Assembly: GCF_000003605.2 (NCBI RefSeq)
Contig: NW_003122929.1
Coordinates: 6,034 to 36,270 of the forward strand
Length of the DNA stretch: 30,237 bases
Source of the DNA: Saccoglossus kowalevskii
Lineage: Eukaryota > Hemichordata > Enteropneusta > Harrimaniidae
Direction: 5' to 3'
Below the pieces are notes generated by a model. It saw only the letters and a program-made list of their open reading frames with translations, was not told the DNA's origin and did no database searches. Positions 7,600 to 30,013 of this stretch are shown one piece after another. Made by a program: the position numbers and the translations under genes. Each line of letters begins with the position of its first letter. The first letter of the stretch is position 1.

Positions 7600-7720
7600 G
7601 GAAAGAACTTTTTATATTGTCTAAGCAATATAAAGTTCTTTCACTAATGTATAGCACTGTTCCAATTGTAATTCAAGACTCAAGGTCGCCATGGGTACCT
7701 AGGGGACCCCTTCATGAAGC
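7600..7720 (-). repeat. R2 repeat, left copy, with long hairpin
   Basis: Bases 7601-7619 and 7626-7642 form a near-perfect stem (GAAAGAACTT...TATATTG with CAATATAAAGTTCTTTC). After it come TAGCACTGTTCCAATTG and GGTCGCC, which recur at 10494-10545. The hairpin core TATATTGTCTAAGCA recurs at 10449 (one change) and in part at 17274. It sits at the 3' end of gypsy copy A and is a candidate LTR segment. Confidence 0.7.
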
Positions 7721-7879
7721 TCACTCCAAAAAAACTGTCAGGGTGGGTGCATTGTGTGTTTTCCCAATGTATGGCTCTGAGTCCATAGCCTGCGTCCATC
7801 TACAAACTACCAATGTCCTAAATTACCATGGTACTATCAGCCTTCAAACTTAGCGGCCCCACAGTTCATTGCCTCACGT

Positions 7880-8460
7880 GCCTCACCCTTCGACTGAAAT
7901 GCACGTTTGATGCTCCATGTTCATCTGAATATCAGATATTATAGCGAATATCCAGTTGAGCCATGGCATGTACAGTTGAACGCCTTTCATTTGCGGTTTT
8001 GTTCATTCTCATAGCCACCATGTCTAGCAAGGTACGATTCGTCCTCTTGCACTGCATGCATCCTTGTATGGGCTGTATTAGACTTTTAAATGTTGAGGAT
8101 TGTCAAAGTTCTGTGATGATTTTCATATACAAAAATGTTGTTCTTGGTCTGAGTGTATTCTCACTGGTCATCCATAGTGTTGTGTAAAAGCTTTGATTTG
8201 TTGTTTGTATCGCTATGATTAATTTGTTGGTAAAATGGTCAATGCATCCTTAACTCACATGGTTGGGATGTTATAATAGCTACCAATGGAGCTCCGGTCT
8301 TTGCACCAGCTGGATCTGTTTTTGATGAACATATGAACATGTTCGACTGCTCTAATACACAGTATGTCGTAGAATGATGGCAGCACAGCACTTTCCTTAT
8401 CACCATTTCGACAAACTTAGTATAATATTGTATCTCTGTAGCACATTCACACCACAAGCT
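7880..8460 (-). pseudogene. Gypsy copy A integrase remnant
   Basis: Recognisable pieces on the minus strand are AKTGAPLVAIITSQP (near 8300), IDHFTNKLI then AIQTTNQS (near 8230-8180), and ENEQNRK, stop, KAFNCTCHGSTG (8000-7945). The last matches the segment after the integrase core where gypsy proteins have an AYN-C-R-H-STG motif, followed by YSL-YLIFR (usually a YSP-YLMFGR type). Stops and frame changes are frequent, and no complete D,D,E triad can be read. Confidence 0.7.
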
Positions 8461-8689
8461 TCTCTATACCTCTCTGCCTTCGTCAGGTGTTTACTGTTTA
8501 CCATTCATCATCAAATTCACTACTCGTGATAATAATGTTCTTGCGCACTTCTCCATTCACGAATTGTGATTGTTGGAAGTATATTCTCCTCTGAAAATGT
8601 AAAAGGGTCCATTATTTCTGGCCTGTTTATGATCTGGGATTACTCTAATCACTCACTCAAGTCACTGATCAGCTTCTCTAAACGTTATT

Positions 8690-8890
8690 GATATATTGTT
8701 TGGTTGCCATGGCAATGCATCTATATCGGCATTGTTATGTCAAGGTTGGTAACTAATACTAGTAGTCAGGTCGAAATTTGCCAATTGGTCCACCATCTTT
8801 GGCCTGTAGTGCTGACTCTGGCAGTTGTAACTACCTACGTCAATGGATTGTTATACAAGACGACTTTTACCTTAGGTTGGCTTCATGCAA
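8690..8890 (-). pseudogene. Gypsy copy A RNase H remnant
   Basis: The minus strand gives VKVVLYNNPLT, stop, VVTTARVSTTGQRWWTNWQIS, then HNNADIDAL. This is the gypsy RNase H segment around NNPLTY and NADADALS, and the same segment is found in copy B. The plus-strand open frame 8704-8922 is its antisense shadow. Confidence 0.85.
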
Positions 8891-9096
8891 ATACTACACT
8901 ACCTTCTCCAGATGTCCCTTGAAAGTCTTCGAAATACTATAACATCATCATAAAAGGCGTGGCAGATGTTCATGTTATTCCTTCCCAGTGCTTTCTCTAT
9001 CGTCCTTTGACAAGTTGATCCAGTATTTTTTGGCGCTCGCTTTGAGTAGTTGGTGGTTTTTAAACAAACGATACTCATTTAACCCAAAACTTTTTG

Positions 9097-9306
9097 TTAC
9101 ACTTCTATGACGCCTTCATATTGTAAACAGCCATCAGTGCCACCTTGCATCCTAAATTTCTCTTGTAACAAAAAGGATTTGAAATAAATGTCTGTGGTAA
9201 TATAATATGAACTTGCTATCATCGATACCTGTGAACTGGCATCGACTAGAGTCATTGCTTTTTTACCATTGATGTTACTATTGAATTTGCTAAGTTTACC
9301 TATCAA
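9097..9306 (-). pseudogene. Gypsy copy A aspartic protease
   Basis: An open piece of 69 codons reading NINGKKAMTLVDASSQVSMI and ending YEGVIEV. It is a retropepsin fold fragment in which the catalytic D-T/S-G is D-A-S, so it is probably inactive. It lies between the zinc-knuckle remnant (CAKC at 9442-9431) and the RNase H, as expected for gag-pro-pol order. Copy B has lost this domain. Confidence 0.8.
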
Positions 9307-9419
9307 TCAATAGGGAGACCCTTATTGTCCACTTTGTGGCTCTCATCCCATGAAGACGACTACTGGAGTTATGACCTACCTTGCACTGTATACGCTTAGG
9401 GCAGTCACGTCACATATAG

Positions 9420-10250
9420 TCACATCCCTAACATTTAGCACATTGTTACCTAGACCTAAACGTTAACAATTGTATCATTACAATTCATTAGGTGTTCTTT
9501 CAGTACTACTATCCACAGGTGGTCCATTACTATATCTTCCTGTATTAGTACACATATCATTCCATGCCAGATTAGAATATCAACTTGACTCTACCACACA
9601 TTTGAATGGCTTCTATTAGCTTTTGTAGATGGGTGACATCCACTGATTCATCCACCTTCTGTTACATAGTATAACAGTTTATCATTGCAACTCCACTTGT
9701 ATCATTTTCACCAAACATAATTTCCATTTAATCTAACACACATTTACCGTGTCGACCACAGGAATGGTTAAACACGCGCCAGCAGCAGGTGGTTTCAATG
9801 ATTTAGTAACTTGCAAGAGTAAAATAGTTTCTGTGTACTGATCTGAAGTTACCAAGTGTTGAACTTCTCGCCATCACATCGTGAATATGATACAATCATT
9901 GGCTTCTACAAAAATTCGATACTATAAGCAACTGGGCATACCTGACAAGTGCAAAAACAACGCTGACCAAACCGAACTTCTTGCGTCACCTCCATAACTT
10001 AATCTCGCATCTGTCAGCCTCAACGCTCAGCCTCTGCACGATACCTATTTTCCACTCCACTTTCTGTTTATTCACACATATCGAAACTATTAATCACTGG
10101 GTCTAACAGCAGAGGTGTTAATAAATTCAAAACAAATTCATGGAAAGAAAAATAAATTTTCTTTGAAAACAATGGTTGAAGTGAGATCTATGACATTACC
10201 TTTTTGTCAACGAAACCATTGAACTCCCCCTTATTCTCCTTATTATCCTT
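9420..10250 (-). pseudogene. Gypsy copy A gag-like remnant
   Basis: No long frame survives. Identification rests on position upstream of the protease, a CAKC zinc-knuckle remnant at 9442-9431, and nucleotide similarity to the corresponding part of copy B (16550-16900). Confidence 0.55.
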
Positions 10251-10284
10251 ATTCTTATTATTCTCTGTAATGGATGCGAATTCT

Positions 10285-10580
10285 GACAAAAGAGATCGTG
10301 CATGTTAGTTACCAAATAATATGGGTTTTGTTCTCATCCAGGGTTCGCAGGTCAAATCCGAATTGCGACTAGTAAAAAGGAATCAATCTCAGACAACTGT
10401 GCTACAAAAAGTAATAACTTGAGGTTCCTAATTTGAGAAAGAAATTGCTATATTGTCTGAGCAATATAAAGTCCTCTCACAATCTTACATCTAGCACTGT
10501 TCCAATTGTTCTGTGATTTAACTGTAAACACTTTAGGTCGCCGGATGCTACATCAGTAGGTACCAGTTAACGAACATCAG
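10285..10580 (-). repeat. R2 repeat at 5' end of gypsy copy A
   Basis: Contains TGTTAGTTACCAAA (as near 7348), the hairpin block 10437-10482, then CTAGCACTGTTCCAATTG (10491-10508) and GGTCGCC. It lies directly 5' of the gag region on the minus strand. A matching block at the 3' end (7600-7720) makes R2 the best LTR candidate, but clean TG...CA ends are not visible. Confidence 0.65.
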
Positions 10581-10799
10581 TGTGACTTAAACGTGCACTG
10601 ATGTGGTGCACTGACGTGGTCTCATCTCATCATTGGTGAATCTAGTCGTTCAATAGCCTAGTAGAAATATCACAACTCTCGGCCTTAGAACGCAGGACTA
10701 CAACAAATATCAAAAGAAAATCGAATATTGCGGCGCCCACATTGATGTTACAGGTCAACAGTTACAACATCCAATCAGGTAGTTCAAAAATGATGCCTT

Positions 10800-11510
10800 C
10801 AATGTCAAATATTGACTTCAATATATATATAAAATTATTACTTATAAGTGTGTCAATGTTACTAAATCAACAAGCATGGGACTCGCCACAATTGGAATTT
10901 ATTCTGATACAGATACTCGATTACAATTCGGAAGATAAGGTGCTTGTTTGATGCATACAGAAAATACAGCTACAGAATGTTCAATGCAATGTGGAGAAAC
11001 AAAATGACAGGATGTAGGAGTGATACATGGAAATGAGAAAATAATTTGCTCAGATATCAGTAATTTTAATGATTTCAACTATTTTTAAATGAGTTCTATA
11101 AATAATATACCCAGTCAATTGAAACATAATATTTTCAGTAAATTCTGGCTACGTGTACATCTTCATGTGAGTATTGCTGCACGTTTTGTTTTCCCAATGT
11201 TGTTGACTTGTTCTGAAAATCCATTCATGCAGTAGCATTTATATTTCATCGTTAATTTGTTGAAATTATTTGACTTGTTGTGTTCGTATTTTCACACTGA
11301 TGCCACAATAGTTTGATTATAGATAATCTGCTCTTACTGATAGTGTGGCTACAATGACGCTAATGGCAGTCACGGATAGCGTGAGATGGGTTTCTGTATT
11401 TTAATGAAGTAATACTGGGAATTCAGGTTCAGCTCCATTGCAGTTTGCGTGTTGTTGCTGTGTACACGTGTTACAAAACTATTTTGTATACGTAGAACAC
11501 ATTGCTGGAT
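10800..11510 (-). repeat. R1 repeat, right copy (3' flank of gypsy copy B)
   Basis: The diverged partner of 6665-7330, in the same orientation and the same order of words. It follows the array and the R2 fragment on the minus strand, just as the left copy follows the 3' R2 block of copy A. The plus-strand open frame at 10742-10951 is incidental. Confidence 0.8.
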
Positions 11511-11590: not shown

Positions 11591-11992
11591 CACATCAGTA
11601 ATCATTCAATGACATGGCATTCATACTTAACTGTACCATATGGTATTCATATTTAAACTTACCATATGGTATTCGTACTTAGTCGTACCATATGGTATTC
11701 GTACTTAGCCGTACCATATGATATTCGTACTTAACTGTACCATATGGCATTCATACTTAACTGTACCATATGGTATTCATATTTAAATTTACCATATGGT
11801 GTTCGTACTTAGTCGTACCATATGGTATTCGTACTTAGCCGTACCATATGATATTCGTACTTAACTGTACCATATGGAATGCATACTTAACTTTAACGTA
11901 TGGTATTTATAATTAACAGTACCATATGTCATTCATACTTAACTGTACCATATGGTATTCGTACTTAACTGTACTATATGGTGTTCATACTT

Positions 11993-12667
11993 AACTGCAA
12001 CATACGGTATTCGTACTTAACTGTGCCATATGCCATTCATACTTAACCTTAGCATATGGTATTCATACTTAACTGCACCATACGGCATTCGGACTTAACT
12101 GTACCATACGGCATTCGTACTTAACCGTGCCATACGGCATTCACACTTAACCATACCATATGGCGTTCATACTTAAGTGTACTATATGGTATTTATACTT
12201 AACCTTACCGTATGGTATTCATACTTAACCGTACCATATGGTATTCATACTTAACTGCAACATACGGTATTCGTACTTAACTGTACCATATGCCATTCAT
12301 ACTTAACCTTACCATATGGTATTCATACTTAACCGTACCATATGTTATTCGTACTTAACTGCAACATACGGTATTCATACTTAACTGTACCATATGCCAT
12401 TCATACTTAACCTTAGCATATGGTATTCATACGTAACTGCACCATACGGCATTCGGACTTAACTGTACCATACGGCATTCGTACTTAACCGTGCCATACG
12501 GCATTCACACTTAACCATACCATATGGCGTTCATACTTAAGTGTACTATATGGTATTTATACTTAACCTTACCGTATGGTATTCATACTTAACCGTACCA
12601 TATGGTATTCATACTTAACTGCAACATACGGTATTCGTACTTAAATGTACCATATGCCATTCATACT
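11993..12667. repeat. Higher-order repeat of 14 units (364 bp) within the array
   Basis: The block from about 11993-12310 recurs at about 12357-12667 with only a few changes. It includes the unusual series GCAACATACGG, CATATGCC, TTAGCATATGG, ATTCGGACTT, ATTCACACTT, GCGTTCATACTTAAGTG. The offset measured on ATTCGG is 364 bp, exactly 14 periods. The two copies are far more alike than neighbouring units, so this is a recent block duplication. Confidence 0.93.
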
Positions 12668-13317
12668 TATATGGTATTCATACTTAATCTTACCATATGA
12701 TATTCATAATTAAGCGTACCATATGGTATTCATACTAAACTGCACCATACGGCATTCGTACTTAACTGTACCATATGGCATTCATACTTAACCGTTCCAT
12801 ATGGTATTCATCCTTAAGTGTTCCATATGGTACCATATGGTGTCCATACTTAAGTGTACTATATGGTATTCATACTTAACCTTACTATATGGTATTCATA
12901 TTTAACCGTACAATATGGTATTCATACTTAACTGCACCATACGACATTCGTACTTAACTGTACCATATGGCATTCATACTTAACCTTACCGTATGGCATT
13001 CATACTTAAGCGTTCCATATGATATTCATACTTAACTATACCATATGGTATTCATACTTAACTGTACCATATGGTATTCGTACTTAGCTGTATCATATGA
13101 TATTCGTACTTAACCATACCATGTGGTATTCATATTTAACAGTACCATATGACATTCGTATTTAACTGTACCATACGGAATTCGTACTTAACTGTACCAT
13201 ATGGTATTGGTACTTACCTGTATCGTTTGGCATTCGTATCTAACTGTACCATACGGCATTCACACTTAACCATACCATATGGTATTCATACTTAACCTTA
13301 CTATATCGTATTCATAC

Positions 13318-14239
13318 TTAAGGTAGAGATGCAGGTTTGTGGGCACTTGGGAGTAAATTGTTTTTTTGCTTTTTTATTATCCAAAAAGTCTTGGCTATAG
13401 ACTGTTGAAATTTTGTGGAATTGTGAATAGTGGAACATACTCAAAAAACGATTTTAAAATGTAGATAACAGGTGCAAAATTATCTCTTTTGAATGCTTAG
13501 CAAGATTTCGCAAGGCTGTACATAAATAATAAAAAAACATGGTGAAAAAAGAAATGACGGGATCTCCATATTATGCACTGTATTTAACTTTTTACAAAAC
13601 GATAATACATTTAAATTTGAAACTGTAACAGCCATTTTAATTATGAGCATTAGCAAACTTCTCACTGAGTGAATTGTTATGCAAATTAGCAATTATCTCA
13701 GCTTCTTTTTAGTGCACATTCCAGAACTTTTAAAAAAATAGCTCCTAGACGCTTTGACATTTTGTTTTGAAATTTTCACAAATGATTGACAATGTTCTTA
13801 ATCCACAAAACGCCGTCGGGGCATTGTTTTTAGTTGAATAGTGTTACAGCAATCGTACAGACAACTAGCCTGGGTGTTAATTTATGCATAAACTTGAAGT
13901 AGTGAAATTTCAGCTGCTGCACTACAAAATTGACAACTGGTAGACAGTTTTCAAGACGGCGCTTTCTTCATAGTAAACAGATGTACCCATAAACCAATTT
14001 TGACAGGAAACAGAAGCATGGTTTAGAAGCTATTTTTTTTAAATCACTTTTGACCAAAAAAACACATTTTTGTGCATATTTCAAACTACAGTGTCCATAA
14101 AAATATAATACTAACAAAACTTTAAAATTCAAACAATAAGCTTTCCGAAAATATATAGTTTTGTGGACAAGGGAGGTCATCTTGGTTTCCTAATTAACTA
14201 ATTAAAATACCTGTCAGGTAAACTGCATCTCTACCTTAA
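13318..14239. mobile_element. 914-bp TTAA-flanked DNA transposon (piggyBac-like, non-autonomous) inside the array
   Basis: The element is 13322-14235. Its ends are a perfect 13-bp inverted repeat, GGTAGAGATGCAG (13322-13334) and CTGCATCTCTACC (14223-14235). Identical TTAA duplications lie at 13318-13321 and 14236-14239. TTAA is the target of piggyBac-type transposases. Deleting the element and one TTAA restores a normal array unit (ATTCATACTTAACTGTACC). Internal frames (13480-13692 and 13968-14180, minus) show no transposase features, so it must depend on another element. Confidence 0.93.
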
Positions 14240-15129
14240 CTGTACCATATGACATTCATACTTAACTGTGCCATGTGGTATTCGTACTTAAGTGTACCAT
14301 ATGGTATTCGTACTTAACCGCACCATATGGTGTCCGTGCTCAAGTGTACTATATGGTATTCATACTTAATCTTACCATATGATATTCATAATTAAGCGTA
14401 CCATATGGTATTCATACTAAACTGCACCATATGGCATTCGTACTTAACTGTACCATACGGCATTTGTACTTAACCGTTCCATATGGTATTCATCCTTAAG
14501 TGTCCCATATGGTATTCGTACTTAACCGTACCATATGGCATTCATACTTAACCGTACCATATAATATTCATACTTAACTGCACCATACTGCATTCGTACT
14601 TGACTGTACCATGCGGCATTCGTAATTAACCGTGCCATACGGCATTCACACTTAACCACACCATATGGTATTCATACTTAACCTTACCATATGGTATTCA
14701 TACTTAACCGTACCATATGGCATTCATACTTATCTGTAGCATAAGGTATTCGTACTTAATTGTACCATCTGATATTCATACTTAACCTTGCCATATGGTA
14801 TGCATACTTAACTGTACGATATGGCATTCATACTTAAACGTACTATATGGTATTCACACCTAACTGTACCATCTGAAATTCATACTTAACTGTATCATAT
14901 GGTATTTGTACTTAACTGTACAATATGGTATTCATACTTAACTGTACCATATGACATTCGTACTTAAATGTACCATATGATATTCATACTTAACCTTACC
15001 ATATAGTATTCATATGTAACCGTACCATATGGTATGTGTTCTTAAACGTACCATATGGTATTTATACTTAAAGATGCCACATGGCATGGAATTGTCCTGC
15101 ATATGGTATGGAGTTATTGTAACCGTTCA

Positions 15130-15560
15130 TTCAATTCATGATTATCTTCACCATGTAGTTCCACTCTTTGGTCACCATGACAATGCATCTGAATTGCATT
15201 ATTATGCATCAGCATTGTTATGTCCAGGTCTGTATCTAATAGTTACTAATTTGCCAATGGGTCCAGCATTTTTGGCTTTTAGTATCAAGTATGGTGGTTG
15301 TACCTATGTACGTCAATGGATTGTTATTCATGAAGACTTTTACCTGGTGCCCATAATAATAGTTGCAAATCCTTTCGGTAACAGGTATCCAAGATATTCA
15401 AGTTTGTGGGTTAGTTCTCTTCACTTGCAGATAGACTTCTACTCGTATACGACAATGGCAATGGTGCTAACCTTTTGCTCATGTCGAATTCATGGGCCTA
15501 GTACAATGATGCCCAGTCGTTTTTATTTGGTGGAGTACATAAACGATATCGATTAACAAT
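15130..15560 (-). pseudogene. Gypsy copy B RNase H remnant
   Basis: Pieces on the minus strand: TTGHHC (near 15510), ITERICNYYYGHQVKVF-type sequence (near 15360), NNNPLTYIGTTTILDTKSQK (near 15320-15265), and YRPGHNNADA in a shifted frame. The catalytic Asp of the family's TDNNPLTY is Asn here. Several frameshifts are present. Confidence 0.87.
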
Positions 15561-15699
15561 AATGTTAAGTGCTGCTGGACTTTCTTCTGTCCAGATGTGA
15601 GAAGGAATCTGTGTATGCTCAATCTTTTGAGTTTTCATCAGCTGACCCGAGGTTAACTAATGTATCGGTCAGGTGATTGCCGAATATCCCTGCACAAAT

Positions 15700-15965
15700 T
15701 GTCTACAATTTCATGTGACTTCCAAGCACCTGCCAAGTATGCAACACTTCGATATTTGCTGGGTCTGCTTTGATTCCATCTTTGGACACCACATGTAACA
15801 GATCCTTAACATGTTTGCGGAACAGCTGACATTTCAAGTGCTTTATTTTTAGGTTTATCTTATGTTATTTTTTCCGAGTACTCTCTTTATTGTCTGCCGC
15901 CAAATGCTTTGGAATTTGTCAAGCTGTATGGGGTCGTGGTATATTCGAAAAATCCAAAAGGATAA
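15700..15965 (-). pseudogene. Gypsy copy B reverse-transcriptase fragments
   Basis: The minus strand gives PFGFFEYTTTPYSLTNSKAF (near 15960-15895), matching the PFGLTNAPATF region of gypsy RTs. It then gives a 44-codon open run from 15840 to 15707 with KCQLFRKHVKDLLHVVSKDG and IKADPANIEVLHTWQV, the thumb and connection segment. The YxDD box that should lie between them is deleted. Confidence 0.87.
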
Positions 15966-16247
15966 CCAAATAATTATCTGACACCAGTTTGTGCTCTGTA
16001 ACAAGTACATCCCTTTCCCATATACGAGGAAGTGCATACACATTGCGCTTTACATTGCTTCATGTCTCTTGCCCTCCTGACTATCCTCAATTGGTTTATT
16101 GGTCACGTTGCTCATCACTAATAACAGTACAGTTCGATGGCTCATGCACATTAGTAACCATTAGTTTCAAATTCTTGTCTCTTATAGGCTGTTATCGACA
16201 TTCGCTCTGAGTAGTTGGTGTTTTTGTCATCAGGGTTATTACCTACC

Positions 16248-16330
16248 TTATTTATGTGATGTATAATTGTGTCTCTGACATTTAGCACATGGTTCCTGAC
16301 ACTCTTTTGCAATATGACCTTGATTGCCGA
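16248..16330 (-). pseudogene. Gypsy copy B gag zinc knuckle
   Basis: The minus strand reads GNQGHIAKECQEPCAKCQRH, then NYTSHK and a stop. It contains the G-H-x4-C end of a first CCHC knuckle (its first two cysteines lost) and the start of a second Cys-x2-Cys motif. Copy A retains CAKC at the same place. Confidence 0.8.
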
Positions 16331-17229
16331 TAGCATTTACATATTTATCGTTTGTGTGCTTGCGCCTGTTGTGTGACCCGAGGTGTTCATTGACTGACTA
16401 TCTCTAGGGGAACCAATTTCTCTATTTTAATTTGTGTTACTTGTGCGAATATTTCTGTTATTTGTCTCTGCAAATCTACAACGTCATTCCCTGGTCTTTC
16501 AGGTGCATTGGGTCAATCTGTAATCTTTCCTGGATTAAACTATCATAAAATTGCTGCTGGAGATGAATATCAACTTGTTCCTTCACTGACTCCACGCCAT
16601 TAAACAACTCCCATTAGCTTTTGTTGGTGGCTGCCATAATCACACATTATTCATCCATCTTCTGATGTGCAAGTTTCTTAATGCATCTTCACTTATATTG
16701 ACTTCATCGAACATCAGTTCCAATTCATATTAAACACATTTACTATGTTGACTGAAGGAATGTTGTTGAACACAGACCCAGCAATCGGCGCTTTCAATGA
16801 CTTAGTAATAATGAATTTACCAACTATTGAACCACATCGCAAGTTGGATACTATCATTGGGAGCCTTGGCTTCCACATCAAAACTGGGAATCCCCGACCA
16901 ATGCAAACACAGCAGGACGATCTCCCACTAATGACGAAACCAAACTTTTTGTATCACACCAGTCCTGCATCTCGGCTTCTAACACCTGTCATAGTTTATC
17001 CTTTAAAGCCACTTCTTGCTTTTGGCGTCATTTCCACATCTTTATATCTCGTACATGCCTGTCAAAACGCCCGACCTCTCTATGCTACTTCTTTTCCACC
17101 TCACTTTCTGCATCTTCACACAAAACAAAACTACTGTCATCATTATCAGAGCGGTTATCGTTGCTCAATTCTCTGTGTTGGGGAATAAAGGATGCCTATA
17201 ATGAAATGATCTATAAAGAGAAATTGATC

Positions 17230-17814: not shown

Positions 17815-17864
17815 NNNNNNNNNNNNNNNNNNNNNNNNNNNNNNNNNNNNNNNNNNNNNNNNNN
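17815..17864. other. Assembly gap of 50 N
   Basis: A run of 50 N. The round number suggests an arbitrary-length scaffold gap, so the real distance is unknown. Confidence 0.99.
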
Positions 17865-18374
17865 CAAATAAGACACACACAACGAAATACGTTTCAACTC
17901 TCGTCTTAGTCGATCTTTTGGAGCACTCTATAAGACACAGCGCCCTGGGGAAAAGTCCCCAAGACTCTCACAAGGCTGAACCAAGACTCGCCCAAGACTG
18001 GACTGCCTCAAGGCTCGCCCCTGGACTCTCTCGGACTGCGTCTGTCGTGGAGTATTCGCCAAGACCAACTCAAACTGTCTTTATTCATTTTCAAAACTCT
18101 AACCAATTACAAAACAGTAAAAGGACTCTAGGGCGTAACCTTCAATCATAAAGCCAATCACACTAAGTACTGAATACGGCATATCTTTTGATTAATCGTT
18201 CACTACATTAATAACTACGGATGTCAGAATAGCGACGGTATCTTGTAATTAGTTCCAAACCACTGAGCCAAGTTCCGTCCAAAACTTCAAATAGGCCTAC
18301 ACGATGACAGACATAACACAACAATTCGCTCGTAATCAACTAATTAAGTCGGTCAAGAGATACGCGAAAACAAA
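17865..18374. other. GC-rich, repeat-like flank of the gap
   Basis: 17940-18060 is rich in CAAGACT, AAGGCT and GGACT words in imperfect tandem, with CTGGGGAAAAGTCCCC forming a small dyad. It looks like part of an LTR or another interspersed repeat; I do not recognise the family. After 18120 the sequence is ordinary AT-rich DNA without features. The open frame across it (17918-18151) has no recognisable protein. Confidence 0.4.
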
Positions 18375-18960: not shown

Positions 18961-19140
18961 TTAATTGGAATGGGTGACTGTTGACAGTCAAATATACAAG
19001 TTGCAGAAGATATATTTCTAAGCTCTTCTACTCAGTACATATACATACAATTAATATCGCACGTATTCGGAACATCTTTAATATTATAGTCAGGCACTAC
19101 TCATCTCAGGTGCTTATAATATTTATTATAGTAATTATTA

Positions 19141-19870
19141 GTCCCCGTTCGGACGAAGTCCGAAAACGGGGACTTATAATTCGGTCTCCGTCCGTCCGTC
19201 CGGAGTCATATTTCAGAATCCGTCGGACCGATTCCATTCATTCTTTGCATGTGGTTAGTACTTTATGTGGGACATATTCACATGCAGTGGTTTAGCGATT
19301 CGATTCAAAATGGCCGACTGGCAGCCATCTTGTTTTTTGAAAAATGTCGTATTTTGGACATGCTTTGTCAGTTTTCATTCAAATTTGGTACACAGATTAT
19401 ATATGTTAGGATACATGTCCTCCGACTGTCTGTGTGTGCGTTCATCCGTGCGTGCGTCTGTCCGTCCGTCCGTCTGTGCGTGCATCTATGAGGAGTCATA
19501 TTTCAGAATCTTTTGGACCAATTTTGTTCATTCTTTGCATGTGCCTAGTATTTTATGTGGGACATATGCACATGCAGTGGTTCAGTGATTCAATTCAAAA
19601 TGGCCGACTGGTAGCCATTTTAGACATGCTTTCATTCAAAATTGGTAAATAGATTATACATGTTAGAATATATGTCCATGACAATATCTTTAGCAATTTG
19701 ATAAAAGATGGCCGACTGGCAGGCATGTTTTTTTTTTTAAATATGGTATCTTGGACATGCTTTGTCAGTTTTCATTCAAATTTGGCACATACTTTATACA
19801 TGTTAGGATACACCTTCATGACAATTTGCTTCAAAATCGGATCAAGGATGGCCGATTGACAGCCATCTGA
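19141..19870. repeat. Dispersed repeat with terminal hairpin and internal tandem units
   Basis: Starts with a hairpin at 19141-19173 (GTCCCCGTT-CGGAC, GAA, GTCCG-AA-A-ACGGGGAC), then GTCCGTCCGTCCG runs. An internal unit of about 290 bp recurs: GAGTCATATTTCAGAATC at 19203 and 19494, GTGGGACATAT at 19267 and 19557, CACATGCAGTGGTT at 19280 and 19570. The phrase ATGGCCGACTGGCAGCCAT appears at 19310 and, changed, at about 19600, 19707 and 19847. The overlapping plus-strand open frames (19249-19652) only translate the repeat. Confidence 0.85.
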
Positions 19871-20008
19871 CTTTTTGGCTTTACTACTATATTTCCAAGA
19901 TTTATGTATTTATGTACCATTTTACATATATATTATTATTATTTTGAATCTCTTTAAGTTATTAATTATGTTGTTTGTGTTATTAATTGAGAATCTTTAT
20001 TTTTACAG

Positions 20009-20075
20009 TGTTTTCAATTTGTTATAAAGTGGCGACAACATGGCAACTAAGATTTTGATTATGGCTTTGGCATTG
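20009..20075 (+). CDS. Secreted peptide exon with start codon
   Basis: TTTATTTTTACAG ends at 20008 and could be an acceptor, in which case an untranslated exon lies further left. Alternatively transcription starts close by (TTATAAAG at 20022 is very near the ATG). ATG is at 20040-20042 and the donor GTAAGT at 20076. Confidence 0.65.
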
Positions 20076-20629
20076 GTAAGTTTCCATCTGATACAATTGT
20101 ATTAAGTGATACATTTGTGTACATGCTTTCATGGACTTTTGTGTACATGTTTTCATGGACTGAGTGTTTATTACATATCTTGTTTTTTAAATGTGAAGTT
20201 CAACTGCTTTTTAAAAAAACACATATTTTAATTAAAGTGAAGATTTAAGGCAAATCTTACAATGCCGAGGTATTGTTTATTTACTGCAAATAAATTAATT
20301 ATACTTTATTTTTAATTTCAGTATGTCCACCAATCATTAAAATTCGCTAAATTAAATCCATATTAATATGCAAAATAACAATGGATCTTTTTGGATCAGA
20401 ATGACCTAATTACAATGACCTGATTGTATGTATTCTGTTCGTTAATCAGGTGTTGCTCTGTGCTGTCTTAGTCAGTGCCCAGCCAAGAATCGATCTATGG
20501 AAATTTAAATTAAATCGTGCGGTCGAAAACAACGCACTAGATGGTTATACGGCCAAAACCAGCGCACTGGATGGCGCTGAATCAGACGAGGAAACGAACA
20601 TTCCAGACGTGTTACCTTTAAATTATTAG
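20040..20629 (+). CDS. Small secreted peptide precursor, 71 residues, two exons
   Basis: Exon 20040-20075 (12 codons, MATKILIMALAL) ends at the consensus donor GTAAGT. Exon 20450-20629 follows an AG acceptor and adds 59 codons and TAG; the join is phase 0. The hydrophobic N-terminus MATKILIMALALVLLCAVLV ending SA is a signal peptide with likely cleavage before Gln23, leaving a 49-residue, cysteine-free, acidic peptide (starting QPRIDLWKFKLNR, ending IPDVLPLNY). The N-terminal Gln could become pyroglutamate. The decapeptides AVENNALDGY and TAKTSALDGA are tandem copies, from a 30-bp DNA duplication at 20520 and 20550. There are no dibasic sites. The start has A at -3 and G at +4, and AATAAA lies at 20761. 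I recognise no family. The exon structure is inferred from sequence alone. Confidence 0.75.
20450..20629 (+). CDS. Secreted peptide exon 2
   Basis: The acceptor context is CTGTTCGTTAATCAG. The exon carries the end of the signal peptide (VLLCAVLVSA) and the whole mature peptide, and stops at 20627-20629. A 374-bp intron separates it from exon 1. Confidence 0.72.
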   Translation: MLLCAVLVSAQPRIDLWKFKLNRAVENNALDGYTAKTSALDGAESDEETNIPDVLPLNY

Positions 20630-20760
20630 ACACAGGCCATTCAAGGTTATTGTTAATTTTGAGAATGTATAAACCAGTACGATTTTTTATATAGTTAACC
20701 CAACCGTAGAACACAAAGCAATGTTTTGGCAACAATTGACATGACAATTCTCAAGAACGG

Positions 20761-20766
20761 AATAAA
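20761..20766 (+). terminator. Poly(A) signal of the secreted peptide gene
   Basis: AATAAA, 132 bp after the stop codon, followed by a TACAC-rich stretch. Confidence 0.6.
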
Positions 20767-20947
20767 ACTGACAACTACACTACACTACACTGCGAATCAG
20801 TAAGAGGAAGAAGATATAATTTTTGTATTTCAAAAATGCTATTTGAAAAAAAAGCATAGCTGATAAATTCACTGAGACATATGAGCTTGTCACATTTCAT
20901 TGCGTGCAATTCGTGAGTGTGTATGTTAATATGTTACTCTTTTTCAG

Positions 20948-21013
20948 GTGGTGTGTACTTTGAAGGTTACTGAAAATAAAACGACGCTGAACAAGTCACT
21001 ACCAAGTAATTAG
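20948..21013 (+). CDS. Possible alternative last exon of the secreted peptide gene
   Basis: A good acceptor (TTACTCTTTTTCAG) ends at 20947. Spliced in phase 0 to the exon ending at 20075, the next 21 codons read VVCTLKVTENKTTLNKSLPS and N, then TAG. The segment carries two N-glycosylation sequons (NKT, NKS), and AATAAA follows at 21046. The product would keep the hydrophobic N-terminus with a short polar tail. It may instead be a decayed duplicate exon or chance. Confidence 0.3.
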   Translation: MVCTLKVTENKTTLNKSLPSN

Positions 21014-21045
21014 CAACTGGTGGCGGTAATTCATCTTTAGAACAT

Positions 21046-21051
21046 AATAAA
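21046..21051 (+). terminator. Poly(A) signal after the possible alternative exon
   Basis: AATAAA, 33 bp after the TAG at 21011-21013. Confidence 0.35.
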
Positions 21052-24000
21052 ATATGACCATTAAATATTGTCACTCGACATTAATATGCCTAGTTGTTCA
21101 ATCAGTGTCATGTGCACATGTCCAATCTAGCGTCTTCAATCCCTTCGTACTTATAAATGGAACACAGACGTTTCTGCCGACATATTCTGCAACCAATTAT
21201 GAGATTTTATTACATGTAAACACTCCTAATATACAGCAGGATAAAAGGGTGTGATGTCCCCTTTACCAATACAAACAGTTTTTCACTTATTTTACGTACC
21301 GCATATAATTTTTGGACCGTACAAAGTGACATAATAAGAAGGATATACTGGAATATAGTTCATATACTATGCTGATAGTAACTGATACTTGTTTTGTTTG
21401 AAAGGGCAATTTTTCCATAGAGATACATCGAATGGGTCTAATGATTGATAATTGATAATTTGTATTTAAATTACTGGTGTAGCGTTTTCAACTTAGTAGT
21501 TATCTTGTCTGTCTGCCTGCGTGTCTGTCCTCCTATCTATCCTTCCCACATTGTGCTACCATGTTCCCGGGAGGGGCACTCGAATCGGGGCTCAGTTTGC
21601 AGGCTGCAACACAAAAACGTGTATTTTGAGTGGTTTTCAAACAAATAGTCACGTGTATGCACACACGGTGTTTATGATTATTGAAGTCGAAATAAAATTA
21701 TTCTTTGCAAATATATTTTTCTTTTTAATCTCAATTTCCTTTGTGATTCTCCTGGCGAACATGCCGGCGAATCGCCAGTGTGAATCTGTATTGCAGATTT
21801 CTTTGTTAACAACAACTCGGTAATTATGAAGAAACACATAAAACAGTTAATAGTCAGTGGTGGCGTTGTATGGTGCATTACTTATAAACAAGCATTTATA
21901 TGGATTGTTTCCTGCATATGGCCCAAGATCGAACTTGTTCGGTGATATAGTTGTTGGGTGTCTACTTACTATATATTTCAAGTTTCTGAGACGGACCATA
22001 TTGGACTATGCGTATACCCCATGACACAGAACCAGGACAGGAAACATTGAAGCTATTCTTGGGATTGTTGGCGCGATGGAAAGCATGTATAGCGATGAGA
22101 ACATGTGAACATCAATAAATATAAACTCAATAGCCAAAAACACCAAAAAAAGTCGCCGCTGTAATGGCAATATTTTCGTTACAAACCCACGAGTGAACTT
22201 TGTATACTTTAGGGATATGTTGTTACATCGCCATAACCCCCCCCCCCCGCCCGCGCACACTGACTCACTCGAACTGAACCGTATACACACGACTTGATAT
22301 CGGCGTGTCGTAAAATTTAGTTTTTTTTATTATAAATAAGCGGGTGTGTATGTATGTATGTTACTACTAGTAACAGCTTTTTTCCAACACAGGTCAGATA
22401 ATTGTAATCATGATATCACACGTACAATAGGGGATGCGTGGCTAAATTGTCACAGCATAGAAACCTATATGCGAACGAGCAAAGCAAGGAGTGAGTATTT
22501 CAGAGAGTGTCAATCATTAACCATTACTGTTAACGAAGCACAATAAGCTTGGATTGGTTGTAGATATAAATCAGAACGAATCACCAATTCAACAACGAAT
22601 ATTGTTGGTTTCCTTGCCATTATTGAGTTTTTTTTTATTTATCGGTATTTCGGTGTAAACATTGCAGTTTCTCTAGATAAAGTTCCAAGGTATTATTTTT
22701 ACTGCGGATATTTCTCTCCGCTTCTTTTTGTTCCTGGACCTTGTAACGGTTATAAAACTTAAAAAATAAATATAGCCGTACATACAAATAAAAAAAAGTG
22801 AAACCCAGATAAGAATTTAAGGTCAAATGAATATTGTCACGTGCAAAGTATTAACAACAACAAAGACTGAATTCGCAGCGAATTGGATACCCCTTATTCG
22901 ACATTAATGTGTGTAATATAATGAATAATTTATTTTTTCAGGTAATAAATTTGGTAATTTGTAAATGTACTGTGATGCTTATGTACACGTCTTGGATGTC
23001 CTTGTCGGTCAATTTAGTTTAGTTTTGTTGTTTGTAATGACCTTATTTTATTTTATATTTCCAAGGTAATGTCGTATTAATTAATACACTAAAATTGAAA
23101 TAAATCACCCAAAACACAACTGAGTTTGTTTTTATTTTATTTCAGGTATAAGGAATATGATATTTCCTTGTTGTATGTTATATTTGCTCGCTTATAAGTC
23201 AATACAATCATATGTAGGTCGTCATCCGCGATATTTATATTTGTCCCTTTGTTTTACTTTACTTTTACTGTTATGTCATTTATTCAATACGGAGAATATT
23301 TTTCTGATATATGGAAAAAGCAAAGGCTAACCCTTCACATAAGTCTGGCTCAATACATGATCGATAATTTGAAAATAATTTTCATATACACTTTTACAGA
23401 TTTTTGAAACCGTTACTTGTTGATAGTTCGTGGCAAATGGCGGCCAAGTTAATTTCTAATATTTTCTGGAATCTAACATTTTTGTTTTTAGGCGTAATTT
23501 CAGCTTTCGTTAAGTAATCACAATTTAAAGTTTAGCTGAAGTTTTCAAAGTCATGCTTGTGGTGGCAACATCGCCCTTTCAAAAATAAGATGTTGAAATG
23601 AACAACGTAAATTAAAAATCCTATTTTCAATTTGAGGCTTTTCATTTTATTGACGCGTTAGGTGATACTGTCACGTGCCGAACGAAATTAACAATAGATC
23701 AAAGGCAAGTGGAATCAACAATGTATCCAGTCAGTTGCCTTCCCACGCTTCGTCAACGTGATGATCACGTGGGTGACCTGCAATGTACGCTATAGAAAAG
23801 TAACGCTTTTCATTGTCTGTATCGAATTTTAGTTGTCTGTCTGGAAAATAAGAGACAGAATAAGGTTGGGGACGTCTGAGCTACATGCGTATTTTCTGTA
23901 TACCCCACATTCTATGGATAATGATGAACTAAATAAAATTACTTTTATTAACTTTTAGAAAAGCTTTCTAGTCTTAGTCAACTATAAGGTTTTCCTTAAC

Positions 24001-24263: not shown

Positions 24264-24335
24264 ATGAACTTCGTCGTTTCTGTTTTGTTGCTGGCAGTGC
24301 TGCCCTTCGTTGTTCTCTCGCAGGATGTACCCCCA
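24264..24335 (+). CDS. ASAH1: Acid ceramidase exon 1, signal peptide
   Basis: ATG at 24264 (A at -3), 24 codons ending DVPP, donor GTAAGT at 24336. The open frame extends upstream without an ATG, so this ATG is the natural start. Confidence 0.9.
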
Positions 24336-27300
24336 GTAAGTATAGTCGCGGTTATCTTCTCAGAAAGGTGTTGTCATTTACAAAATATGCACCGAGCCGT
24401 AGTATAGTAGTATATTCAGTTCTCGAGATCGACTCTCCTAAGTGTCTCTGACCATGGACGTACTCTCCAGTACGTCCGTGCTCTGACTAACATTTGTAAC
24501 CATATGACAACTTGCCCATACTACTTAGTCGATCTTTTATGTTATTATTTCCCCTCCGTGGTCAAAACAAATCAAAAGTGCGTTGACCGTTCAGTACCAT
24601 GATACTTCCTTGACACCGGAAATAATGTAGGTCAAAAAATGAAGATCCTCTGATGGTGAATATTACGTTCCTTCCCCCTTTTTGTTGTTACTGTAGTTCA
24701 CACTTGTTTATTTTAAAGGTATTAAAATACACCTTGTTTCGTGAGGTGTGAATATAATTGTTTCATATAAAATATTCATAAGTGTTTATAACTTTCAAAT
24801 GAAAGCAACTTGACCAATCACAAACCTTAGTGGATGAATAGTGGTTAACCTCTGACCTCTCCTATTCTTTTAATTTTATTTCAGCAAACAAATCATTGTA
24901 ATTTCAGCATTTCAAACAAATTTGATGAGATCCATTTTGTTGCATTCATGACATCGAATCAGCCAAAAAATAGATCCTACAAAGGCTCGTGGGTAATGGC
25001 CGTTAATGGTTTCCACAGCCAGTGAAAGCATAATTATATTTTGATTCAAATGAAATACAAATAAATAAGAATAAATAAATGTTTTAATAATATTTATAAA
25101 TGTCTCTAAAACAAATTTGAGCCCTCATGAACCCAATGTATCGTAAAATAAACACTAAAATGACATATACAATGACTGAATAATTACACCAAATTAATGC
25201 TATAATGAAGACAAACTGCCATGAAAGGAGAAACAAGGAAATGAAAGCAACATAAAATTTACTCTTCCACAATTTAACGTGAGCTCGGCCGACATGTCAA
25301 ATGATATGACGACTACCTCTTTCTTGTTGTATATTCAATCAAAAACAAGTTAGAGTACATTTTCTGACTGAATATATATTTACTAGTGGTTGGCAACAGC
25401 AACATGTTGCTTGTCAGTATTTTAAGATGAGTTGCTGCCACGTTATTGGTCAGAATACTGTTTGACTGAAACTCAAGAAACTGCATGAAATAATAAGGTT
25501 AATTGTCGCATAGAGATCTCTCCACAAATTCCTAGCATGTAGCAAATTTTGATGGGCTTCCAAGCAAGCTCTTCCGCTTGTTAGTACAGGTAGTATATTA
25601 CCCATAAAAGTGTACAGCACATTTTAATGCTACTTTCCAAACTACCCCGGTAGTCAACAAAATAGATGAATTTATGGGTTATTTTTTATGTGACCAATCA
25701 GGTATAATACTAATATTGTATATGGACCATGAAAATCATGAAGCTGAGATCCTGAAATCCCAAAAATTAAAAAAAAATAATTATTTTTACCGCGGTTATA
25801 TTACTTTAAATATCACAGTCTGTCGCCAACTTATTTAAATAATTTTCTTATTTTAAATTTAAACATTCATTTTTGTCATTTAGATAAATGACAAATTTAT
25901 ATTCGTAAACACAAGCTCTTTATTTTTATTTGAACAGCTTGCTACATAAAATTAGGTCTGCATCTACATGTAATTTTATATATTATTGCACAGGCACTTT
26001 AAGAATTCGTAGTTGTCATTGTCAAAGTCAACTAAGTTATTTGCAAATATCTTGTTTTTTCTTTTTTATATTTCAATAAAACTGTTTCAAGTCAGATGGA
26101 TTTATCTATTCAAATGAAATAAGTTAGTTTGTGAAACTGATGTGTTCGAACAGTATTACATAACTACAAGAATAAATTTTATTAATATAAAATTAAATAT
26201 AAATTTATGGTCATTAAACTTTTTTCAGTGACAAAATTTATATCATATACACAAGCGGTTTGAGTCATTGCAATTGTATTTACTTTCATAGTTTACAGAA
26301 GATTGTCGGTTTGATGTATACCCACCAAAACTCGAAACCGCTGTACCAAACTACGTGATCAACCTGGACTTGGATCCAAAGGACAGATGGAATGAAGTCA
26401 TGAAGGACAAGGCACAAGAGGTGAGGCCCAGAAAAAAATAAAAAAGTTTCTAGTCAATTTGTTTGTAAAAAAATGGGTGCAATTTACCAATAATCTATTT
26501 TCAGACTATCTTAAAAATCATGTTGAAATTTTTTTCCATTTTTAAAAAAATATTTGGACAAAAATCTGAAAAAAATTGACAAACTTTAATCTACAAATTT
26601 TTAGCTGATACCTGGGATGACTGGATACGAAATATTACTCTGTATTATCATTTACTTGTGATGAAAGTGAATTTAGTATATTCTTGTACTTATCTGTAAA
26701 AAACAATCAATGTATTTATCCGGTATAAATACATTGATTGTATTTATACCGGTATTACTTTGATTGGTCGGTACATTCTGTAGCGCACACCTTATAAAAG
26801 AAATTACAGAAAAGTACAGCATTTTTTGTTAATTTCCATATAATAAAATACTATTGAAAATTGGTAGCACTGCAATCTCAATAAAAAGTAGGAAGCTAAA
26901 TTGATGACTAATACGGTAGTCCAACATGCTGAGCAATTGACAAATTTTCAACCATTTGAGCGCACTTTCCTTTCAAAATGATGGTGCAACATTTTGCCTA
27001 TATTTATGTAATTTTCTACAATAGTTTAGATAATTTTGAACCAGATGGACATAGTTTTGTATCAGTTGTAGGTCTTGATCAAAATTTACGAAAAAATATG
27101 GAAAAAATTATGCAGATTTAATTTTTGTTAAAGGTGTCAAAAGTTGAGGTTAGGATTAATGTAGGCCCTGTATGGTTAATAATCTTTGAAAAAAAGGGGC
27201 GTATATTGTATGCCTGTTACAATCAGTGATTGTAGATGTTATCTTGATCACAACTTCAGACTTTGATTTACTTAGTTGATGATATAGACAAAGGGTATTG

Positions 27301-30013
27301 TTCATTTTACTGTATACAATCATGTGAATATTGTTACCACCACAGTCAACATTCAATGTGCACAAAGTCAGCTTCAAGTGCGATACAAATAAACAAATAA
27401 GCAAAGACATGTTTTGTTTTATTTATTCAAATTTTATTCCAGCGACATACATTGTGCTTTTGAATATTGTATGAAAAAACAGTGTGCAACATACACATGT
27501 TGTATATATGGGACCTACATTGAACATGGCATGCCACAATGACTGTGGCACCTTCAATACATTTATCTTTATTGTGCCACTGAAAAATAATTCTGAAAAT
27601 CAACACGTGAGGTAGCAATCATGAATGATTTTTCTTGTAACCTGTTATCAAACCATATATAATTTGGGAAGGTGAGTAACCTTCTTGTAGAATGTACAAT
27701 GAAATAAGAGGGGGGGGGGTAGTGGGGGGTAGGGTAGCTGGTACAGTTTTACGGGAAATGAAAAGGGCCTTTTACAATTTTACAGTTTACAGTGAAAATT
27801 GACTTTTGCAGTGAATTGTGTCATCTAGTCGTTTTACAGTTTCGAAAATATAATTTCCCTGGATTATTCTTTCAACTTTTTTTATTTGAATGTAAATTCG
27901 TGTACGTACCGAGAAAAATGACACATTTTTACAGTGTACAAAAAAAATATTTGATTGATTACGTCTAGCCTGTGATTACAGAATTACGGATTTATTTTTT
28001 TCAATTTATGTTGTAGGAACAAAAATATATTGCAATTACGTTGAACGAAAATAACCCTTGCTCCCCCCAAATAATCTTTGGTAGTACACGTATATTTATG
28101 ACATCAAACTATGTGATGTGTATTTCGGCTTAGTTCAGTATTACATTCGCCGCACTGTGAAGATATACATTTTATGTATTTGATGAAAGTTCTGATCAAA
28201 ATGTTTGTAAAAATATAGAAAAAAATTAAAGTTTTGCATAATTGTGCAGTTTTCCGTGATTTAAAAAGGTTTTTTAGCATGCATTCTTTTTTAAACAAAA
28301 TTCTGATCAATAACCAATATAAAATCATGTTCATTTTGTTCAAATTGTAAAGGACGGTGGTCATCGCGTTGCGTCTTGTTCGATATGGGACTCATAGTGA
28401 CGTACATTGTGTACATGAAATTCAAACTGCCCACCACCCTATGGATGACCACTGCTCTTTTACAAAAAAGTTGTAGTAAAATATACAAAAATTTGCAAAA
28501 TGTTGCAACAAATTATGTCAAAATATGTTTCGCCATTTTTATTTTACACTGAGTTAGTATAAAACTATTTTTGTTTGTTTTACTCATTGACTATACTGAC
28601 TTTTTAATTTCAGTTTGGTGATATGCTGAATGTGATTAAAAATCTGACAGGCTCTTTTTTTAACGGTGCGCTGATTGAATTTGTGGATAAACATTTTGTA
28701 AGTATCAAAAGTACTTGATCTTTGTATTAAAATTTCAGTAAATCAGCATGATTTGGTCAGTTTTGTATACAAGCATGCAGGAATGGACTGGGACCAAAAA
28801 ACGGCCCTGGACTTTCTTGCCAATAGGCCACAGAAAAACCGGGGGGAGGGGAGTAGTCATTCTGAATGTTGGCTGTTAAAGTTTGGAACAGTATAGTGCT
28901 GATGCCCGTCGGCTGTAGACCGAACGGCCATTCTGGACTTTTATCAGTCTGCAATAATGGACAGACTTAAACATGTATTGAATGTACTTGGAATACACAC
29001 GTCTTTAAACTACGTACGTTTCATAAGGATATATACTCAATAATAAATGGAACTGTTGTTGTTGCACAGTCACTCATTACACATGTTGTTATTACAGGAT
29101 CATTTCATGATTATTTAATTGATTTGTTTGGAAACAGATTAATTATCATTGTTATATTTTCTTTTATCAGTATCATACACTTATTTCCATGAGTATATGA
29201 ATTGCAATGTCGTAATAATTTAATGATCCAATCTATTTGCAAACTTTATTTTATGTGTATTAGAGCAAATATGGTATATATGCAAATAAGACAAAATACA
29301 TCACAAACAGTTGGTTACAATGTACATAGACTGCTACTATGTATGTCACATGTCACAATTTTTCTTTTAATTTGTTTTTAGTTCCTTAAGATGTAATTTG
29401 TATATTTATGTCCATGTGTCAGTCAATTCAACAACATTTTTCTAGGTCATGCTTGGACTGATTTTTAAAGTTGGTAGACTGACATGCCACTATCGTAAAT
29501 GCTTGTTAATTTGTTTATGAATTTTTTAATCGGCAACCACTTTTCTTGAAAAAAACAACATTTTAACATTTGCCATTTCTCAGTCATACCTGGACTGATT
29601 TGCTTCACCATTTCTTGTAGTCAGATTTTGTTCAGAGTATAATTATATCGCTACAGTTGAAAAACTTTGGTGATTTTACTTTACTAAATTTATTAACCTG
29701 GTGGGACTTGCTTACATGGGTGTTAGGTAAGCAGACACTGTCATTTTAAAGCCATCACATTGTTACATGCACTGGTTGGAATATACTTAAATATATCTCT
29801 AGTAAGTCAATGCAATTTAATCAGTGTCACCTAGCTGCAAAAGTAACAGCTTAGGTTTTTACTCACTTTTCTCTTAGGGATGTAATTTCTCATATTTTAC
29901 CTGGGTTTTAGTTATGTGTCTTTGTATCTTTGTAGGACAAAATTGTTTCCACACTACCAGCTCCATATAATGAAGAAATTATTGGTATAGCAGCACTAGT
30001 GGCCTCAAACTTG
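24264..30013 (+). CDS. ASAH1: Acid ceramidase (ASAH1-like), first four exons, incomplete
   Basis: Acid ceramidase is a lysosomal N-terminal-nucleophile hydrolase that cleaves ceramide to sphingosine and fatty acid. Exons 24264-24335, 26292-26420, 28614-28697 and 29936-30013 have GT-AG borders, are all phase 0, and join into 121 residues. Residues 1-20 are a signal peptide ([20 protein letters not shown]). [12 protein letters not shown] and then [17 protein letters not shown] match the start of the mature alpha chain, including the Cys that in the human enzyme bridges the two chains. KNLTGS has a glycosylation sequon, and [15 protein letters not shown] matches the segment shortly before the autocleavage site. 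The catalytic Cys that begins the beta chain lies beyond the window. The TEDC-YPP and NLDL motifs favour acid ceramidase over its relative NAAA. Confidence 0.93.
24336..26291 (+). other. Acid ceramidase intron 1
   Basis: 1956 bp, AT-rich. It holds the hairpin at 24456-24477 and a hydrophobic minus-strand frame at 25084-25272 that I regard as chance in AT-rich DNA. No other feature seen. Confidence 0.85.
24456..24477. repeat. Perfect 9-bp hairpin in intron 1
   Basis: GGACGTACT, loop CTCC, AGTACGTCC. It is GC-richer than its surroundings; with CATG before it and GTG after, the symmetry extends imperfectly. Confidence 0.7.
26292..26420 (+). CDS. ASAH1: Acid ceramidase exon 2
   Basis: The acceptor TTTACTTTCATAG ends at 26291. 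43 codons from FTEDCRF to DKAQE, donor GTGAGG. This is the most diagnostic exon (TEDC, YPP, NLDL, RW). Confidence 0.94.
26704..26752. repeat. Two overlapping, mutually exclusive perfect hairpins
   Basis: CAATCAATGTATTTAT (26704-26719) pairs with 26725-26740 across CCGGT. CCGGTATAAATACA (26720-26733) pairs with 26739-26752 across TTGAT. The middle segment takes part in both stems, so only one can form at a time. Confidence 0.85.
27710..27734 (+). other. G-rich run, possible G-quadruplex
   Basis: G10, TAGT, G6, TA, G3 on the sense strand of the acid ceramidase intron. The first run can supply two of the four G tracts needed. Confidence 0.5.
28614..28697 (+). CDS. ASAH1: Acid ceramidase exon 3
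   Basis: The acceptor TTTTTAATTTCAG ends at 28613. 28 codons from [13 protein letters not shown] to FVDKHF, donor GTAAGT. It is the helical segment between the NLDL and FPxPF-like regions. Confidence 0.92.
28698..29935 (+). other. Acid ceramidase intron 3
   Basis: 1238 bp. The part at 28781-28945 (GGACTGGGACCAAAAAACGG, later GCCCGTCGGCTGTAGACCGA) is GC-richer than its surroundings and may be an interspersed repeat. The phrase GGACTGATTT occurs near 29455 and 29592 in similar contexts. Confidence 0.6.
29936..30013 (+). CDS. ASAH1: Acid ceramidase exon 4
   Basis: The acceptor TTTGTATCTTTGTAG ends at 29935. 26 codons from [14 protein letters not shown] to LVASNL, donor GTAAGT. The next exon, expected to carry the catalytic Cys, is outside the window. 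Confidence 0.92.

What the first reader, a model, noticed from the sequence alone, without database searches (positions are those of the whole stretch)
20040..20766. Hidden two-exon gene for an unrecognised secreted peptide
Seen: two short exons join in phase 0 with a consensus donor, an AG acceptor, a strong start context and a poly(A) signal. The join creates a complete signal peptide that neither exon has alone, which is unlikely by chance. The mature 49-residue peptide has no cysteines or dibasic sites, begins with Gln, and matches no family I know. Inference: a lineage-restricted secreted peptide or hormone-like factor.
Basis: partly seen in the sequence, partly recalled or inferred. Interest (0 to 1): 0.8.

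Follow-up and report, generated by a model that had tools for sequence, protein, structure and literature searches.

The report
Probable split-signal secreted peptide gene
An animal genome fragment holds what looks like a real small gene for a short secreted peptide with no relatives found in the collections searched; genes of this kind are common, and what the peptide does is unknown.

Summary
The host is an animal: the window also holds the start of ABCE1 (minus strand) and the first exons of acid ceramidase (plus strand), used as controls. At candidate-like thresholds, a scan of the real window finds two donor loci, the candidate and the true acid-ceramidase signal exon; 4 of 10,000 shuffled windows hold any. 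At loose thresholds 48 of 60 do. The frame of exon 2 ranks first of 159 open frames for control-like codon-position bias. A real coding gene is likely (about 0.7), but no transcript or relative could be tested: nine own-genome searches did not complete. No credible relative was found. 'Hormone-like' has no support: no dibasic or amidation site. The layout (signal peptide, weakly cationic start, acidic tail, no cysteine in the mature part) recalls linear antimicrobial precursors, but amphipathicity and charge separation do not stand out from shuffled peptides, and two myticalin features fail. An ordinary kind of gene; function unproven.

The parts
20009..20039 (+). possible 5'-UTR part of the exon that carries the ATG, behind an acceptor-like TTATTTTTACAG; holds an in-frame stop TAA 20025-20027
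   Evidence: sequence and translation; that an upstream exon is joined here is inference. One search counted the pyrimidines of this acceptor one base off; by eye 12 of 20
20040..20075 (+). coding exon 1: MATKILIMALAL, start codon and first half of the signal peptide, phase-0 donor
   Evidence: the same donor GTAAGT follows 3 of the 4 acid-ceramidase exons of the window
20076..20449 (+). intron of 374 nt, GTAAGT...CAG, 27% G+C, with a 24-bp tandem duplication
20450..20629 (+). coding exon 2 and stop: second half of the signal peptide and the 49-residue mature part
   Evidence: codon-position bias; 44% G+C
20480..20626 (+). predicted mature peptide QPRIDLWKFKLNRAVENNALDGYTAKTSALDGAESDEETNIPDVLPLNY
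   Evidence: -3/-1 rule by inspection; properties
20516..20575 (+). in-frame duplication of 10 codons, RAVENNALDG / YTAKTSALDG
   Evidence: best 30-nt self-match 22 of 30, reached by 0 of 300 shuffles; codon-aligned units differ at 9 of 30 sites
20761..20766 (+). AATAAA poly(A) signal, about 130 nt after the stop

Best explanation
A small protein-coding gene of an animal nuclear genome: perhaps a 5'-UTR exon, then a short exon with the start codon and half of the signal peptide, a 374-nt phase-0 intron, and a last exon with the rest of the signal peptide and a 49-aa mature part. Shown by the sequence: the anatomy and the open spliced frame. Inferred: the transcript is spliced at 20075/20450, the product enters the secretory pathway, signal peptidase cuts after A22, and a peptide of about 5.5 kDa is released, most likely whole, since it has no dibasic site. 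The first 13 residues carry net charge +3 and the other 36 carry -7. My committed mechanism, weakly supported (about 0.2 on its own), is a host-defence type of secreted peptide with a cationic N-terminal part held in check by an acidic tail, in the manner of cysteine-free animal antimicrobial precursors that are thought to be cut before acidic residues. The confidence below is for the claim that this is a real gene for a secreted peptide.
For: Complete anatomy. Candidate-like models: in the real window only this one and the true acid-ceramidase signal exon; any in 4 of 10,000 shuffled windows; none in the reversed window at strict or middle thresholds. The frame of exon 2 is first of 159 open frames by control-trained codon-position score, and no frame of the 159 reaches exon 2's total score. 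G+C 44% in exon 2 against 27% in the intron. Of 130 AG sites within 3 kb, 6 are YAG with at least 13 of 20 pyrimidines; of these six joins the one at 20450 gives the longest product, 71 aa, and the next 33 aa. Layout like Ciona linear antimicrobial precursors (PMC7387483, passages).
Against: No transcript, no relative, no conservation test; own-genome search unanswered in nine tries. At loose thresholds 48 of 60 shuffled windows give a model. Thresholds were set knowing the candidate. The codon-position score is coarse: both ABCE1 control exons score below zero on it, and exon 2 alone is equalled by 3 of 159 frames, one of them its own. The two duplicated units show no constraint (dN 0.41, dS 0.32). 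For the defence reading: the helical moment is reached by 1294 of 2000 shuffled peptides, the charge separation by 935 of 10,000, and the mature part as a whole is acidic (about -4).
Confidence: 0.7

Rival explanations
1. Chance: in AT-rich animal intergenic DNA an ATG with a hydrophobic run happens to face a hydrophobic open frame across plausible splice sites.
For: 48 of 60 shuffled windows give a model at loose thresholds; at the strict rate (4 of 10,000 windows of 30 kb) a genome of 1 Gb would hold about 13 by chance (my arithmetic).
Against: 4 of 10,000 shuffles at candidate-like thresholds, plus codon-position bias and higher G+C confined to the exon, which the scan did not ask for.
Confidence: 0.2
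2. A decayed gene or a piece of a multi-copy repeat: the exons were once coding but are no longer functional.
For: Dispersed-repeat-like DNA lies directly upstream (19140-19870, seen by eye); no constraint seen between the duplicated units.
Against: Frame, start, splice sites and poly(A) signal are intact; no other copy of the coding part in the window (best other tblastn match E 0.31). Copy number in the genome could not be tested.
Confidence: 0.07
3. A neuropeptide or hormone precursor.
For: Signal peptide, Gln at the predicted N-terminus, a short repeated unit.
Against: No dibasic site, no amidation signal at the C-terminus (sequence), repeated units not flanked by cleavage sites.
Confidence: 0.05
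4. A secreted acidic phosphoprotein of a matrix or mucus, phosphorylated at its S-x-E site in the acidic tail.
For: One S-x-E site at mature residue 35, pI about 4.4. That S-x-E is a secretory-pathway kinase site is recalled.
Against: A single such site in a 49-aa acidic peptide is not informative; no test of tissue or partner was possible.
Confidence: 0.1

Closest known systems
Linear cationic alpha-helical antimicrobial precursors of Ciona (Ci-MAM and others; PMC7387483, passages seen)
   Same: Short cysteine-free secreted precursor in the order signal peptide, positively charged part, anionic part, without basic processing motifs between them
   Different: The positive part here is weak (+3 over 13 residues) and not more amphipathic than shuffled peptides; no sequence comparison with the Ciona proteins was made; host not shown to be a tunicate
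Myticalins of mussels (PMC12294457, passages seen)
   Same: Secreted precursor with a cysteine-free mature part and an acidic C-terminal part; exon 1 of myticalins is 5' UTR only, which is possible here too
   Different: Myticalins have a phase-1 intron in the coding sequence, a dibasic site in nearly all precursors and a strongly cationic mature peptide; here phase 0, no dibasic site, net charge about -4
Neuropeptide precursors of animals (general class, recalled)
   Same: Signal peptide, small size, N-terminal Gln
   Different: No dibasic cleavage sites, no amidation signal

Membership tests
Myticalins | coding sequence interrupted by a phase-1 intron at a conserved position (PMC12294457) | tested here: not met
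   the intron is phase 0: exon 1 has 36 coding nt
[quoted passage not shown]
   no KR, RR, KK or RK in the mature part
Myticalins | strongly cationic mature peptide | tested here: not met
   whole mature part about -4.2 at pH 7; first 13 residues +3
Myticalins | sequence similarity to known myticalins | not tested
   no myticalin sequences were fetched; Pfam gave no family
Ciona-type linear cationic alpha-helical antimicrobial precursors | 50-100 residues, secreted, no cysteine in the mature part | tested here: met
   71 aa, signal peptide by simple rule, no cysteine in the mature part (sequence)
Ciona-type linear cationic alpha-helical antimicrobial precursors | cationic amphipathic helix | tested here: inconclusive
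   helical moment reached by 1294 of 2000 shuffled peptides; low-confidence helix 6-28 from the single sequence, mean pLDDT 61.7; HeliQuest thresholds of the paper not run
Ciona-type linear cationic alpha-helical antimicrobial precursors | anionic C-terminal region without basic processing motif | tested here: met
   residues 14-49 net -7, no dibasic site; but 935 of 10,000 shuffled peptides separate positive charge to an end as well
Neuropeptide precursors | dibasic cleavage sites flanking the bioactive peptide (recalled) | tested here: not met
   none in the mature part
Any Pfam family | profile match | tested here: not met
   0 families at E up to 10 for the 71-aa product

The most novel reading that the evidence does not exclude
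A lineage-restricted secreted peptide of a family not yet described, built around a duplicated ALDG unit with a cationic start and an acidic tail, acting outside the cell as a defence or signalling factor.
Probability: 0.35. Interest if true: 0.4.

Novelty: new member of a known kind. Interest (0 to 1): 0.27.

Why it matters
Short secreted genes whose signal peptide is split by an intron are easy for gene finders to miss, and such genes include lineage-restricted defence and signalling peptides (general knowledge, recalled). If expressed, this is one more example with a precise, testable gene model. It changes no general picture.

Tried and rejected
PDB sequence matches to designed proteins 'Scone-R' and 'Cake' (whole-sequence E down to 2.5e-06 and 1.5e-07): rejected, because the score is summed over repeats of one weak match of 18-20 residues, each with an i-Evalue of 270 or more in the two alignments shown. 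A match to complement factor H at E 0.96 is at chance level.

Copies of the coding part elsewhere in the window: none convincing (best other tblastn E 0.31; a 32-nt blastn match at E 0.006 involves the intron). Viral contigs with the 71-aa product and prokaryote genomes with the mature part: 71 and 117 stretches matched short patterns, none confirmed, as expected for an animal gene. Naming the species by scanning viral contigs for a dispersed-repeat stretch and a satellite unit: no match. Text search for six peptide strings: three papers, unrelated by title. Three topical searches listed 10, 4 and 7 papers; I read titles and abstract openings, and passages of two papers only.

Exon 1 to other acceptors: 2 of 130 AG sites give longer products (119 and 87 aa), with weaker pyrimidine tracts (11 and 8 of 20) and a further long hydrophobic stretch seen by eye. 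A non-ATG start in exon 2 without splicing is not excluded. CpG content as a hint at expression type: exon 2 observed/expected 1.24 against 0.89 (ABCE1 exons) and 0.63 (acid-ceramidase exons), but the stretch 20800-24000 has 1.01, so not used. tRNA and Rfam scans of the window: nothing.

Small flaws of my own controls: the ABCE1 exon used for training (1624-1731) seems to include two intron bases at its end; a training exon (acid-ceramidase signal exon) lies in the frame that ranks second of 159.

Full report
What was checked. The finding describes a two-exon gene at 20040-20766 on the plus strand. Every stated element is at the stated place: ATG at 20040 in the context CAACATGG, 36 coding nucleotides, donor GTAAGT at 20076, acceptor TTAATCAG|G at 20450, stop TAG ending at 20629, and AATAAA at 20761. 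The spliced product is 71 aa. Exon 1 read through its donor stops after 21 residues, and the frame of exon 2 has no Met codon before its hydrophobic half, so a Met-initiated signal peptide needs the join.

Host and controls. The window is animal nuclear DNA. The minus strand at 1624-1731 encodes the start of ABCE1 (Pfam Fer4_RLI, E 2e-14); a second ABCE1 exon at 1177-1260 was recognised by eye and located. The plus strand from 24264 encodes the first exons of an acid ceramidase: Pfam NAAA-beta, E 1e-19, PDB acid ceramidase chains, E 2.4e-20; its exon 2 starts in frame at 26292. Six exons with 182 codons served as controls. The species was not identified; the impression that the dispersed repeats look molluscan is recalled and untested.

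More than chance? I scanned both strands for an ATG with a purine at -3, at most about 150 nt to the donor GTAAGT, an intron of 60-1000 nt, a YAG acceptor with a pyrimidine tract, a product of 60-160 aa and a signal peptide by a simple rule (hydrophobic core, -3/-1 residues, hydrophilic mature part). With at least 13 of 20 pyrimidines the real window gives two donor loci, the candidate and the acid-ceramidase signal exon. Of 10,000 dinucleotide shuffles in 1-kb blocks, 4 give any; with at least 9 of 20 pyrimidines, 28 of 10,000 and 2 of 1500 in an earlier run. The window read backwards gives none at strict or middle thresholds. At middle thresholds 21 of 1500 shuffles give one; at loose thresholds 48 of 60 do, mean 1.77 loci, against four loci in the real window. 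The thresholds were set knowing the candidate, and a whole genome would hold some chance cases, so this is strong but not conclusive.

Coding character. With codon-position frequencies learned from the control exons, the open frame that holds exon 2 has the highest position score of 159 stop-free frames of 50 codons or more. For exon 2 alone, 3 of the 159 frames reach its position score (its own frame, the frame with the acid-ceramidase signal exon, which was used in training, and 26960-27118), and none reaches its total score. Against this, both ABCE1 control exons score below zero on position, so the measure is coarse. Exon 2 has 44% G+C against 27% in the intron; 6.4% of 180-nt stretches of the window reach that.

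Surroundings. An acceptor-like sequence ends at 20008, with an in-frame stop between it and the ATG, so a separate 5'-UTR exon is plausible. Of 130 AG sites within 3 kb downstream, 6 are YAG with at least 13 of 20 pyrimidines; the one at 20450 gives 71 aa and the next best, at 20948, 33 aa. No convincing other copy was found in the window. Exon 2 holds an in-frame duplication of 10 codons; its best 30-nt self-match (22 of 30) is reached by 0 of 300 shuffles. The codon-aligned units differ at 9 of 30 sites, dN 0.41 and dS 0.32: no visible constraint, on very little data.

What the peptide looks like. If cut after A22, the mature part has 49 residues, about 5.5 kDa, pI about 4.4, charge about -4, no cysteine, no dibasic site, no N-glycosylation site and one S-x-E site at residue 35. 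The first 13 residues carry +3 and the rest -7; 935 of 10,000 shuffled peptides show as positive an end. The helical moment is ordinary (1294 of 2000 shuffles reach it), and so is the strand-type moment (981 of 2000). AlphaFold2 on the single mature sequence gives a helix at 6-28 with low confidence (mean pLDDT 61.7, pTM 0.25).

Relatives. Pfam: none at E up to 10. PDB sequences: only summed weak matches to designed repeat proteins and a chance-level match. Viral contigs and prokaryote genomes: none. The own-genome search was unanswered in nine tries. No animal collection was available, so neither conservation nor restriction to a lineage was tested.

How it might work. The order signal peptide, weakly cationic part, acidic part, without cysteine in the mature part and without a dibasic site, is the order described for linear antimicrobial precursors of Ciona, whose authors suggest processing before acidic residues (PMC7387483, passages). 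Myticalins of mussels share the cysteine-free layout with an acidic tail, but have a phase-1 coding intron and, in nearly all precursors, a dibasic site (PMC12294457, passages); both were tested here and not met. I hold the defence reading at about 0.2, the matrix reading at about 0.1 and the hormone reading at about 0.05; the rest is an unknown secreted role or no gene.

Verdict. The kind of gene is ordinary for animals. The functional label in the finding goes beyond the evidence.

Noticed in passing
window 1177-1731, minus strand: First two coding exons of ABCE1 (RNase L inhibitor); exon 1 matches Pfam Fer4_RLI at E 2e-14, exon 2 recognised by eye.
   Followed up: partly
window 24264-30013, plus strand: First four exons of an acid ceramidase gene (Pfam NAAA-beta E 1e-19; PDB acid ceramidase E 2.4e-20); used as a positive control.
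   Followed up: yes
window 11614-13321 and 14235-15071: Two arrays of one 26-bp satellite unit (ATGGTATTCATACTTAACTGTACCAT, about 66 and 32 copies), the unit beginning with ATGGTA and ending with the near-complementary TACCAT.
   Followed up: no
window 3954-5678, minus strand: Open stretches that look like a decayed non-LTR retrotransposon reverse transcriptase by eye; the two longest gave no Pfam match at E up to 1.
   Followed up: partly
window 7600-11500 and 15100-17200: By eye, stretches on both sides of the satellite arrays resemble each other (for example near 8700 and 15170), perhaps diverged copies of one mobile element.
   Followed up: no
window 17816-17865: Run of about 50 N, probably an assembly gap.
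   Followed up: no
window 19140-19870: Dispersed-repeat-like DNA with repeated ATGGCCGACTGGCAGCCAT-like and GTCCGTCC blocks directly upstream of the candidate gene.
   Followed up: partly
window 20946-21013, plus strand: A second good acceptor (CTCTTTTTCAG) that would join exon 1 in frame to a 21-codon alternative last exon, giving a 33-aa product.
   Followed up: partly
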